The notes below the pieces were generated by a model that was not told the DNA's origin, did not search any database, and saw nothing but the letters and a program-made list of their open reading frames with translations. A program made the translations under genes and the position numbers. Source: Serratia sp. M24T3 (GTDB lineage Bacteria > Pseudomonadota > Gammaproteobacteria > Enterobacterales > Enterobacteriaceae). Taken from it: DNA of 64,000 bases. Position 1 is the stretch's first letter. Every line of letters starts with the position of its first letter. Location: NCBI RefSeq assembly GCF_000257645.1, contig NZ_AJHJ01000019.1:1-64000 (forward strand). The letters run 5' to 3'. Positions 3,397 to 37,612 of the stretch are shown piece after piece.

Positions 3397-3494
3397 AGTG
3401 TTCAACCGCGTTCTTGTAGGCTTTGGCTGACAAGAATTGAACTCCTAGCCTTGGTACCTAAGTTTTTTGCCGCCGCGCTTTCTGTTGCCGGCAA

Positions 3495-3568
3495 TAAATA
3501 CGGTGCCCTGGCCGTGGCTTTACGTCACCAGGGTGCAGGGTAGAAATGCCCGCATCTTCCCGTATTTG
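3495..3568 (+). promoter_or_regulatory. Molybdenum cofactor (Moco) riboswitch, moaA leader
   Basis: The closing stem pairs AAATACGG (from 3496) with CCGTATTT (3560-3567). Inside are the conserved GCCCTGGCCGTG and CACCAGGGTGC strands that form the central helix, followed by GAAA. This matches the Moco RNA element known upstream of E. coli moaA. The 3' strand of the closing helix abuts the ribosome binding site of moaA (GGAAAGG, 3568-3574), so ligand binding could mask translation initiation. Confidence 0.88.
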
Positions 3569-3584
3569 GAAAGGTGTTAACAAG

Positions 3585-4571
3585 GTGCAACAACTAACTG
3601 ACGCATTTGCGCGCAAGTTCTATTACTTGCGCCTATCGATCACTGACGTGTGCAATTTCCGTTGCACGTATTGCCTGCCCGACGGCTATAAACCTCATGG
3701 TCACAACAATAAAAGCTTTCTGTCACTCGACGAAATTCGGCGGGTCAGCCGCGCTTTTGCCCATCTTGGCACTGAAAAAGTTCGTTTAACCGGCGGCGAA
3801 CCTTCGCTGCGTCGCGATTTTGCCGAAATCATCGCTGCCGTACGCGAAAATCCCCAGATTCGCCAACTTGCCGTGACCACCAACGGGTATCGCATGGCGC
3901 GTGACGTTAAAACCTGGCGTGACGCGGGGTTGACGGCAATCAATGTCAGTGTTGACAGTCTGGATGCGCGTCAGTTCCACGCCATCACCGGGCAAGACAA
4001 ATTTCGCGAAGTGATGAACGGTATTGATGCTGCCTTTGAGGCGGGTTTCGCCAAGGTGAAAGTCAACGCCGTACTGATGCGCGACGTCAATCATGCCAGC
4101 CTGCACACCTTCCTTCACTGGATCAGAGATCGTCCGATTCAGCTACGCTTTATCGAGCTGATGGAGACCGGCGAGGGCGGCAGTCTATTCCGCAAACATC
4201 ACATTTCCGGTGAAGTTATCCGCCAACAGCTGGTTCAACAGGGCTGGACATTAATGGGCCGCAGCCGCAGCGACGGCCCGGCGCAGGTCTTTACCCATCC
4301 TGATTATCTCGGTGAAATCGGCCTGATTATGCCTTACGAAAAAGATTTCTGCGCCAGTTGCAATCGCCTGCGGGTGTCTGCTCTGGGCAATCTGCACCTG
4401 TGCCTGTTCGGCGAGCAGGGGATTCCATTGCGAGATCTGTTGGCTGATGATTTGCAGCAGGATGAGTTGATGACGCGGATTCAGGGAGGGTTGAGCCTTA
4501 AAAAGCAGACTCACTTCCTGCATGATGGCAATACCGGTATCACCCAGAACCTTTCATTTATTGGCGGCTAA
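3585..4571 (+). CDS. moaA: MoaA, GTP 3',8-cyclase (radical SAM)
   Basis: First step of molybdenum cofactor synthesis: MoaA converts GTP to 3',8-cyclo-7,8-dihydro-GTP. The radical SAM cluster motif CX3CX2C is at residues 23-30 (CNFRCTYC). The second 4Fe-4S site is the C-terminal [11 protein letters not shown] with a later Cys in LHLCLFGE. The protein ends in the double glycine required for activity. Start choice: an upstream in-frame ATG at 3546 lies inside the riboswitch helix. The GTG at 3585 has GGAAAGG about 10 bases upstream and gives 328 residues starting [11 protein letters not shown], matching E. coli MoaA (329 residues). First gene of the moaABCDE operon. Confidence 0.96.
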
Positions 4572-36467: not shown

Positions 36468-36484
36468 ACGCTGGAACATAATGG

Positions 36485-36511
36485 AAAGGCTCCCGAGGGA
36501 GCCTTTTTTAT
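36485..36511 (+). terminator. Intrinsic terminator of the gluconate dehydrogenase operon
   Basis: AAGGCTCCC pairs with GGGAGCCTT, followed by a T-run. Confidence 0.92.
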
Positions 36512-36587
36512 TGAAAAAAACGGGTGCTTAAGAATCTACGCCAACAACGTTCAACAGACGGGAGCGAACCCCCGCCGTTGAGTCGCA

Positions 36588-36746
36588 TTATCTCATAGTA
36601 TCGCAAGATAATAATGCCGCAACCTCCCACAATCCATTCTTGATACTTATTTCACAAAGCGATTTCTCGGTTATTGCCGCGTGCAATATCCATGAAGTAC
36701 AAATTGCGATAACTATCAGAACAGCTGCTATAGGTTTATAAGGCAT
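36588..36746 (-). CDS. Hok/Gef-family type I toxin-like small membrane protein
   Basis: Small gene of 52 codons. Translation from the ATG at 36746 starts MPYKPIAAVLIVIAIC and continues with a membrane helix, then TEKSLCEISIKNG and WEVAALLS. This is the Hok/Gef pattern: short N-terminus, one helix with Cys, then SLCE-(I/L)-x-I-x-x-G-x-x-EVAA. Hok proteins depolarise the inner membrane and are held off by an antisense RNA. GGAGG lies 6 bases before the start. The C-terminus SCDTMR replaces the usual AYE ending. The 250 bases upstream contain strong hairpins, as in hok leader mRNA. Confidence 0.8.
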   Translation of the reverse strand: MPYKPIAAVLIVIAICTSWILHAAITEKSLCEISIKNGLWEVAALLSCDTMR

Positions 36747-36960
36747 TAGTGCCTCCTTCTACTTGTTTTTAAGTAAAAAAGGCGCTACCTTTACGTTCTT
36801 CGGTGTAAAAGATGGCGCCCCGAATTAACTAATAATTAATCGGGGCTCTTCTCTTTCTGGTCTTTACAAACTCATCCATTCTTGCAACAGATAATCCGTT
36901 ATTAGAATAGTTAATAAAACATGCTCAGACCTGATCGATTCTGAGCACCCGCACGAAGTG
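36747..36960 (-). ncRNA. Structured leader of the Hok-like gene, possible Sok-like antisense region
   Basis: Three hairpins precede the Hok-like gene on the minus strand. One pairs GGCGC with GCGCC around CTTTTAC/GTAAAG and ends in six T (about 36776-36823). One pairs GCCCCGA with TCGGGGC (about 36816-36846). One pairs TGCTCAGA with TCTGAGCA (36922-36947). In hok/sok loci the toxin mRNA leader is highly folded and an antisense RNA is made from the opposite strand. The exact antisense promoter is not clear here. Confidence 0.4.
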
Positions 36961-37612
36961 TATCAGCCTTTTTAAAATACACCCATAAAAAATATCAACA
37001 AAATCATAAGTTTATTTTTAATTAATGTTATTTTTTATATATTTTAATTTTGAGGTTAAAAAATAGGATTTAAAAAAATAAAAATCCTTCATTCAAGTTA
37101 AAAGATGTTTTTGAATTCCATAAATATAATTATCGATTTAAGTAGTTCATCAACCTTAATGACTCGTCTAGTTTTTTTGCTCCATAAGTCAATTATCTTA
37201 GATAAATTTTGGTCTTGATGTTTTAATAATTAGAAAAGTGTCAGCCTCATGGCTTGAAGCCAAGCTTCCAAAATTTTTAATCTGCTTTATAAATAGATTA
37301 AGTATAAAATTAGTAAAATAACTCATTAAGCTTAGTTGGAGTTTGGAGTTTGAACGGGCAAGCCATTAATTGATGTTGAGTCATGCGGTTTTTTTGTCTG
37401 ACTTGGCGTAAACCGCCTAAATGATTAGTATTTTCCCACTCAGCTTTCACTTTTAGAAAACATTTTTCCCATAGCTCGCACCTATACCATGACAGGCTAT
37501 ACTTGTTTATAAGGTCGCCACCTTTTTATCTCTGTCGCAAGTGAGAATTTACAGAGCGAAAGGATTTAAACGGGCCGCTGTAGGCGACTGGCAGCCGGCA
37601 AGGGGGTGTATC
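36961..37612. other. AT-rich gene-free region upstream of yohC
   Basis: About 650 bases with very low GC, no supported gene, no clear repeat. The frame from 37541 extends YohC artificially. It could be a remnant of inserted DNA together with the Hok-like locus. Confidence 0.4.

What the first reader, a model, noticed from the sequence alone, without database searches (positions are those of the whole stretch)
36588..36960. Chromosomal Hok-like toxin with a structured leader
A 52-codon gene on the minus strand has the Hok/Gef signature and a good ribosome binding site. Its leader has three strong hairpins. It sits in an AT-rich gap between pbpG-region genes that are adjacent in E. coli. An intact type I toxin on a chromosome would need an active antisense RNA.
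Basis: partly seen in the sequence, partly recalled or inferred. Interest (0 to 1): 0.6.

Follow-up and report, generated by a model that had tools for sequence, protein, structure and literature searches.

The report
Chromosomal hok/sok locus lacking mok start
The window holds a genuine chromosomal copy of the well-known hok/sok toxin and antisense-RNA module, ordinary in kind but missing the usual start codon of its coupling gene, and comparing it with relatives suggests that neighbouring copies differ most at the short stretch where each antisense RNA recognises its own toxin message.

Summary
Real and mostly ordinary. The 52-codon ORF at 36588-36746(-) is a Hok/Gef toxin (Pfam 37.5 bits, cut-off 22). 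Its leader matches Rfam RF01794 and folds far better than shuffles (z -5.9). The locus has a plausible hok promoter, a predicted Sok gene on the + strand and complementary mRNA ends. The genome is a Rouxiella species; RF01794 leaders occur in 69 of 197 genomes sampled from the family.

'Intact' needs a caveat. mok, whose translation is reported as required for hok, has no ATG, GTG or TTG start in either genome of the species examined. A Sok-target stem is still possible but is not the preferred fold of the window's own sequence.

Side result: in tandem hok/sok arrays of other genera, near-identical copies differ chiefly in about 10 nt matching Sok's 5' tail (9 of 9 external arrays with at most 8% divergence; 20 differences, against a mean of 2.3 and maximum of 8 in 292 other windows). 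This suggests, but does not prove, private antitoxin-toxin pairing, as shown by experiment for zor/orz.

The parts
36588..36746 (-). hok: 52-aa Hok/Gef toxin reading frame
   Evidence: Pfam HOK_GEF 37.5 bits, cut-off 22; one amino-acid difference from the same-species copy
36752..36758 (-). hok ribosome binding site AAGGAGG
   Evidence: sequence
36747..36950 (-). structured hok leader (matches Rfam RF01794, whose model lies on the hok-sense strand and ends at the hok ATG)
   Evidence: 42 bits, below cut-off, for a shorter match
36957..36965 (-). extended -10 promoter element TGATACACT of the hok mRNA; predicted start at 36950
   Evidence: spacing and similarity to paralogues; no experiment. 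The generic promoter scan did not list it
36944..36950 (-). 5' end GGGTGCT of the predicted mRNA, pairs with the 3' end in the full-length fold
36522..36528 (-). 3' element AGCACCC (fbi-like; the name is recalled), complementary to the 5' end
   Evidence: located by searching for this motif
36759..36806 (-). mok remnant: frame TPKNVKVAPFLLKNK* with ACA where paralogues have ATG, ending just before the hok ribosome site
36790..36809 (-). possible Sok-target hairpin TTTACA-CCGAAGAA-CGTAAA (5 of 6 pairs), placed by comparison with other copies
   Evidence: not in the minimum-energy fold of the window's 32-nt segment, leader or transcript
36763..36768 (+). -35 element of the predicted sok promoter (TTGTTT), 17 nt before the -10
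   Evidence: same spacing seen in paralogues, by eye; not listed by the generic scan
36786..36791 (+). -10 element of the predicted sok promoter (TACCTT)
   Evidence: not listed by the generic scan
36798..36857 (+). predicted Sok antisense RNA, about 60 nt, with about 10 unpaired 5' nucleotides followed by a terminator-like hairpin; ends are estimates
   Evidence: z -3.41; 1 of 200 shuffles as stable
36817..36846 (+). terminator-like hairpin of Sok (GCCCCGAATTAA / TTAATCGGGGC), followed by a pyrimidine-rich tail
   Evidence: not listed by the generic terminator scan
36796..36805 (.). 10-nt block matching the 5' tail of Sok and the target loop; variable among hok/sok copies and between the two genomes of the species
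36512..37495 (.). segment present in both genomes of this species and absent from the same gene interval in R. badensis

Best explanation
A chromosomal hok/sok type I toxin-antitoxin locus. Inferred working, step by step, after the R1 model: an approximately 429-nt hok mRNA is made from the promoter at 36957-36965; its 5' and 3' ends pair and keep it inert; slow 3' trimming lets it refold and exposes the Sok target; Sok, made from the opposite strand, starts pairing there with its unpaired 5' tail and the duplex is destroyed; if Sok is missing, a small membrane-damaging Hok peptide is made. What sets this copy apart is that mok, the leader reading frame normally coupled to hok, has no standard start codon, although the sequence can still form a Sok-target stem. 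Hok is therefore probably translated weakly, by direct entry at its strong ribosome site or from a non-standard mok start. Shown by computation: the Hok family match, the leader family match, end complementarity, the missing start, few differences between the two genomes. Inferred: transcription, Sok activity, processing, toxicity.
For: Hok family. Leader family. Pieces across about 36516-36975 match other Rouxiella hok loci. Folding: leader z -5.94, 429-nt transcript z -7.77, predicted Sok z -3.41. 5'/3' pairing probability 0.99 in the full-length fold, with the 5' end forming a local hairpin when the last 45 nt are removed. In 19 Rouxiella copies with both ends located, window included, the end run is 6-9 pairs, G-U allowed; 5 of the 24 copies were left out for lack of a usable end, and 3' ends were found by searching for GCACCC or GCGCCC within 160 nt of the stop, so part of this pairing is built in. 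In shuffles of the window's own 160 nt that motif appears in 4.8% and AGCACCC in 0.39%. Target stem in the family: 56 of 75 distinct segments have at least 5 of 6 pairs, against a mean of 25.9 and maximum of 35 in 500 arm swaps. Few changes: G000 against G060 has 3 substitutions in 429 nt of the transcript and 27 in 545 nt of the DNA upstream (Fisher p 1e-4). mok start: 22 of 24 Rouxiella copies have an ATG that opens at least 12 codons, the window and its orthologue have none.
Against: No transcript, antisense RNA or toxicity data. The reported need for mok translation (PMC4147584, PMC5668327) predicts that a mok-less hok is silent. The target hairpin is not the preferred fold of the window's own 32-nt segment, where a competing hairpin wins (it is preferred in the G060 orthologue), nor of the leader or whole transcript. 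3' truncation did not free the hok ribosome site (mean unpaired probability 0.25 full length, 0.16 truncated); of 8 copies from other lineages only two rose clearly (C55, C121), so this test says little. RF01794 is above cut-off in one run and below in two. The two-genome comparison rests on four differences, and the upstream DNA may diverge by recombination rather than relaxed constraint. The generic scan listed neither promoter nor the Sok terminator. NCBIfam Hok models match below their cut-offs.
Confidence: 0.66

Rival explanations
1. A decayed remnant: loss of the mok start has made hok untranslatable, and the locus survives only because it is harmless or too recent to have been erased.
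For: mok has no standard start in both genomes; the target hairpin is not the preferred fold of the window's own segment; several other copies in the genus are visibly damaged: truncated or stop-containing hok genes in G060_7423, G003_C2a, G003_C1, and a displaced start in R. badensis.
Against: The hok frame is full length and scores better than two of the three other HOK_GEF matches of the genome (36.5 against 64.5, 22.9 and 20.7 bits); the transcript differs at 0.70% of sites against 4.95% in the adjacent DNA; another lineage without a standard mok start, G029, keeps two full-length hok genes.
Confidence: 0.27
2. Normal hok/sok function with mok started at a non-standard codon.
For: The mok frame downstream of the missing start is open in both genomes (TPKNVKVAPFLLKNK in the window); two other lineages have ACG in the corresponding place (L238 and L196).
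Against: ACA differs from AUG at two positions and is not a usual near-cognate start (general knowledge); the one-base difference at 36807 between the two genomes shifts any start further upstream out of a shared frame.
Confidence: 0.15
3. The locus is kept for its Sok RNA rather than for Hok, for example as an antitoxin against incoming hok modules.
For: Antitoxin-only orz loci exist in E. coli (abstract of PMC11264685); Sok promoter and terminator elements resemble those of paralogues.
Against: The recognition block of this copy is identical to none of 81 other copies; only its orthologue is one base away, the next nearest two, so it would be expected to recognise few other hok mRNAs; the Hok frame is kept.
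Confidence: 0.05
4. A chance open reading frame.
For: Short ORFs are common in the region.
Against: Pfam, Rfam, folding and the shared layout of relatives all agree.
Confidence: 0.01

Closest known systems
hok/sok of plasmid R1 and its five chromosomal homologues in E. coli K-12 (number from PMC5668327; the names HokA to HokE are recalled)
   Same: Hok-family toxin, long structured leader, antisense gene within the leader, complementary mRNA ends, leader target for the Sok 5' tail
   Different: No standard mok start; Hok only 38.5% identical over 75% to the three PLSDB plasmid records found; chromosomal, between a cytochrome c gene and yohC. R1 itself was not fetched or aligned
Chromosomal hok-sok of Erwinia amylovora (PMC7821729, passages read)
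   Same: Chromosomal hok-sok in an enterobacterium; high-level induction reported lethal there
   Different: Function tested there, not here; its leader was not compared
Other Rouxiella hok/sok copies (e.g. G000:C3, R. silvae C55 and C121, R. aceris tandem triplets)
   Same: Same transcript layout
   Different: 22 of the 24 copies compared, all but the window and its orthologue, have an ATG near the mok position
zorO/orzO and zorP/orzP of E. coli O157:H7 (PMC3919570, passages read; PMC11264685, section 8 read)
   Same: Tandem type I loci in which a 3-nt difference in the pairing region decides which antitoxin represses zorO; variation suggested to prevent crosstalk
   Different: Unrelated toxin family and arrangement; there shown by experiment, in hok/sok here only by sequence

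Membership tests
Hok/Gef toxin protein family | Sequence match to the curated family model above its cut-off | tested here: met
   Pfam PF01848, 37.5 bits, cut-off 22. NCBIfam Hok models match below their stricter cut-offs (33.8 against 73, 31.1 against 89)
Hok/Gef toxin protein family | Toxic membrane peptide | not testable with these tools
   needs expression
hok/sok type I toxin-antitoxin system | hok-type leader RNA | tested here: met
   RF01794 63.3 bits, gathering 59; 42 bits for a shorter match in two whole-genome runs
hok/sok type I toxin-antitoxin system | Antisense Sok gene with promoter and terminator inside the leader | tested here: inconclusive
   Elements present by sequence and similar in paralogues; no transcript evidence; generic promoter and terminator scan did not list them
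hok/sok type I toxin-antitoxin system | Complementary 5' and 3' mRNA ends | tested here: met
   mRNA ends are predicted, the 3' end by its motif
hok/sok type I toxin-antitoxin system | mok reading frame with a start codon, coupled to hok | tested here: not met
   No ATG, GTG or TTG opening 12 or more codons in the 95 nt before hok, in the window or its orthologue
hok/sok type I toxin-antitoxin system | Sok-target stem-loop in the leader | tested here: inconclusive
   5 of 6 stem pairs possible, but not the minimum-energy fold of the window's segment, leader or transcript
hok/sok type I toxin-antitoxin system | 3' processing and RNase III decay of the Sok duplex | not testable with these tools
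   needs RNA experiments

The most novel reading that the evidence does not exclude
In genomes with several hok/sok copies, the few nucleotides through which each Sok recognises its own hok mRNA are driven apart so that every antitoxin is private to its toxin. The window copy is one of these: its block is identical to none of 81 other copies and differs even between two genomes of the species, and change in its target stem has cost it the mok start codon, so that the Sok target rather than mok is the element that selection keeps.
Probability: 0.4. Interest if true: 0.6.

Novelty: new variant of a known kind. Interest (0 to 1): 0.38.

Why it matters
As a chromosomal hok/sok locus it is one of many. 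It is useful in two ways. First, it is a natural test of the rule that mok must be translated for hok to be made, because both genomes of the species examined lack a standard mok start but keep a full-length hok and most of the rest. Second, following it up showed that near-identical tandem hok/sok copies in several genera differ chiefly where Sok is expected first to touch its target, which makes the question of how many related toxin-antitoxin pairs coexist without cross-silencing directly testable.

Tried and rejected
Plasmid origin: the window Hok matched only 3 of 72,556 PLSDB records (E 0.01), at 38.5% identity over 75%, so a recent capture from a common plasmid is not supported. Close relatives in named genomes by Hok: none found. 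The second scan used yohC; it found 102 relatives, kept 80, and named the genus. None of those 80 loci, with up to 3 kb on each side, had a Hok match (three Hok queries, tblastn E 0.01), and the only DNA match to 36480-37500 was 30 nt at the terminator in R. badensis. A very divergent copy could be missed.

E. coli-type adjacency: rejected. Release of the hok ribosome site by 3' truncation: not seen in the window, and clearly in only 2 of 8 copies from other lineages. Origin of the 984-bp segment, insertion here or loss in R. badensis, was not resolved; no search for insertion-sequence ends was run, and the tandem-repeat scan found only a 7-bp repeat.

Variable block, points against: (a) it was noticed in Rouxiella, but its exact bounds were set after the sixteen further arrays had been printed, so the test was not blind; those arrays were picked by eye from the listed part of a longer list. 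(b) The binomial test on the first pair of each array reached p < 0.05 in 10 of 21 arrays; exceptions are mostly arrays with more divergence overall. (c) Two of the 14 arrays with at most 8% divergence were left out of the synonymous-site test because hok could not be compared, and gap columns were counted as block differences over a fixed length of 10. (d) Drift was not excluded: in three triple arrays the DNA upstream of internal copies differed at 17 of 210 positions, against 5 of 32 block columns for the same pairs, too few to separate. (e) Synonymous sites of hok lie in structured RNA and may be constrained. (f) Between genomes 16 of 21 similar pairs also differ in the block.

Papers: ten searches were run; 58, 59, 63, 74 and 75 bear on recognition-block divergence, and none listed a report of it in hok/sok arrays by title or abstract start. 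Most subscription papers are not held. Le Rhun et al. 2023, Thisted et al. 1994 and Fozo et al. 2010 were not held and are known here only from reference lists.

Full report
What was checked. The 52-codon ORF is at 36588-36746 on the minus strand and matches Pfam HOK_GEF at 37.5 bits against a cut-off of 22. The NCBIfam Hok models match only below their own cut-offs (33.8 against 73), so it is a divergent member. A strong ribosome site, AAGGAGG, lies at 36752-36758. The leader matches Rfam RF01794 at 63.3 bits, gathering score 59. The model's alignment ends at the hok ATG and lies on the hok strand, so the match is to the hok leader although the family is named sok. In two whole-genome runs the same place scored 42 bits over a shorter stretch, below the cut-off.

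Setting. The neighbours are a GMC oxidoreductase and a cytochrome c on the left and a Yip1-domain protein (yohC) then dld on the right. E. coli K-12 has dld, pbpG, yohC; the ORFs after dld in the window look like transporter genes (by eye). One more genome of the same species, G060, has the same locus. In R. badensis the cytochrome c to yohC interval is continuous, with about 47 bp where the window has 984 bp (36512-37495). In G003 and G002 the DNA to the left of yohC does not match the window's, and in G004 it is off the contig. R. badensis and R. silvae each have a hok copy about 10-13 kb from yohC. None of the 80 yohC loci kept held a Hok match within 3 kb.

How common. RF01794 matches at E 1e-6 or better occur in 69 of 197 genomes sampled from the family, 51 of 149 genera, and at E 0.01 in 6 of 6 Rouxiella genomes. 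The own genome gave 6 leader matches, of which the one at the end of contig C42 and the one at the start of C69 probably are halves of one copy (inference); HOK_GEF gave 4 matches.

Anatomy. An alignment of Rouxiella copies shows a shared layout: an extended -10-like element, a start at GGGTGCT, the Sok region, the mok start region, hok, and an end at GCACCC. In the window the predicted mRNA runs from 36950 to 36522, 429 nt. The ends pair with probability 0.99 in the full-length fold, and the 5' end folds into a local hairpin when 45 nt are removed from the 3' side. In 19 copies with both ends located the run is 6-9 pairs, G-U allowed; 5 of 24 copies were dropped, and the 3' ends were found by their motif, so part of the pairing is built in. 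That motif appears in 4.8% of shuffles of the window's own 160 nt, and AGCACCC in 0.39%; a 7-bp run between fixed ends arises in 0.48% of random draws. The neighbouring bases also vary in step: GAATC with GATTC in the window, GGATC with GATCC in the C3 copy (by eye). The leader and transcript fold with z -5.94 and -7.77. R1 hok mRNA is described as a 398-nt inert form trimmed to 361 nt, with Sok binding at a target loop (PMC5668327, passages read).

Sok. On the plus strand TTGTTT (36763-36768) and TACCTT (36786-36791) are 17 nt apart, as in paralogues (by eye). The predicted RNA, 36798-36857, folds into about 10 unpaired 5' nucleotides and a terminator-like hairpin. The generic scan listed neither promoter nor this terminator, and the ends are estimates.

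mok. In 22 of 24 Rouxiella copies an ATG opens a frame of at least 12 codons in the 95 nt before hok; the window copy and its orthologue have no such ATG, GTG or TTG. At the ATG column they have ACA; the rest of the frame, TPKNVKVAPFLLKNK, is open and stops just before the hok ribosome site. A stem around the ATG is common in the family: across 75 distinct segments, 56 have at least 5 of 6 pairs, against a mean of 25.9 and maximum of 35 in 500 swaps of arms between copies. In C3 it is TTTATG/CATAAA, in R. silvae C121 and R. badensis CTTATG/CGTAAA, here TTTACA/CGTAAA, which reads like a U-A to U-G to C-G change at one pair and the loss of another; this order is inference. Against this, the window's own 32-nt segment prefers a competing hairpin, while the G060 segment prefers the expected stem, and neither the leader nor the transcript fold of the window shows it. 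The window is not alone without a start: 4 of 88 other rows also lack one in the scanned stretch (two G029 copies, L196, L213). That call had a misplaced anchor for the window pair, for which one search is the evidence, and 7 of its rows repeat copies already present.

Is the window copy maintained? Between G000 and G060 the transcript has 3 substitutions in 429 nt and one 1-nt gap, the DNA upstream (36951-37495) 27 substitutions in 545, flanking genes 0.4-1.0%; 3 of 429 against 27 of 545 gives Fisher p 1e-4. Two of the four transcript differences fall in or next to the Sok recognition block (36801 and 36807), one in the Sok hairpin (36839), one changes hok residue 51. This agrees with recent constraint, but recombination in the AT-rich DNA is an alternative.

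A pattern noticed on the way. Among tandem copies in Rouxiella, differences seemed concentrated at the mok start. Sixteen further arrays were taken from other genera of the family by their spacing, picked by eye from the listed matches. A 10-nt block was then fixed as positions -18 to -9 before the TAGC that is complementary to the Sok -10 region; since the arrays had been printed by then, this was not blind. Taking the most similar pair of each array, 13 of 14 arrays with at most 8% divergence differ in the block, with 31 differences, against a mean of 3.1 and maximum of 10 over 292 windows away from it; for all 21 arrays it is 19 of 21, 44 differences, mean 10.8, maximum 22. For the 9 external arrays at most 8% divergent it is 9 of 9, 20 differences, mean 2.3, maximum 8. 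Counting gap columns, block differences are 27 of 120, synonymous hok sites 17 of 416 and other hok sites 11 of 1390 in the 12 comparable arrays; external arrays alone 22 of 90 against 15 of 317. Among within-genome pairs at most 10% divergent outside the block, 30 of 32 differ in it; the two exceptions are a pair with one truncated hok and a pair 0.5% apart. The window block is identical to none of 81 other copies, and the five copies of its genome have five different blocks.

Limits of that pattern. Between genomes 16 of 21 similar pairs also differ, so difference is not confined to copies sharing a cell. The binomial test on the first pair was below 0.05 in 10 of 21 arrays, and the comparison with upstream spacer DNA was too small to exclude drift (17 of 210 against 5 of 32). 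For zorO/orzO and zorP/orzP a 3-nt difference decides specificity by experiment (PMC3919570, passages) and variation is suggested to prevent crosstalk (PMC11264685, section 8). [quoted passage not shown] the paper itself was not held.

Verdict. The finding is a genuine, mostly ordinary hok/sok locus, filed as a variant because the mok start, a defining part of the system, was tested and not met. Whether it is active is open. On checking, the odds of the best explanation and of the novel case were lowered slightly, because the target hairpin is not the preferred fold in the window and the block was not fixed blind.

Noticed in passing
36796-36805 in the window; L223-L238; R. aceris, G003 and G060 tandem copies: Near-identical tandem hok/sok copies differ chiefly in a 10-nt block matching the Sok 5' tail and its target loop. 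Suggests private antitoxin pairing; drift not excluded.
   Followed up: partly
L238 (both copies), L196, L213: Other hok/sok copies without ATG, GTG or TTG in the scanned mok stretch; ACG at the corresponding place in L238 and L196.
   Followed up: partly
36744-36950: Rfam RF01794 'sok' is modelled on the hok-sense strand and ends at the hok ATG, so automatic annotation would place 'sok' on the wrong strand.
   Followed up: no
37336-37352: A 7-bp repeat TTGGAGT with 2.4 copies here; the same-species genome has 35 more bases there, about five more units.
   Followed up: no
3430-3592: Molybdenum cofactor riboswitch, 87.2 bits.
   Followed up: no
G000:C69 and C42; G060:C1:741989-743251: A tandem hok/sok array elsewhere in the species with divergent (20.7-22.1 bits, cut-off 22) or truncated Hok proteins.
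   Followed up: partly
L057 (R. badensis): The ATG next to the leader opens only 6 codons, while the mok frame runs on through the Hok-like region as one 72-codon frame.
   Followed up: no
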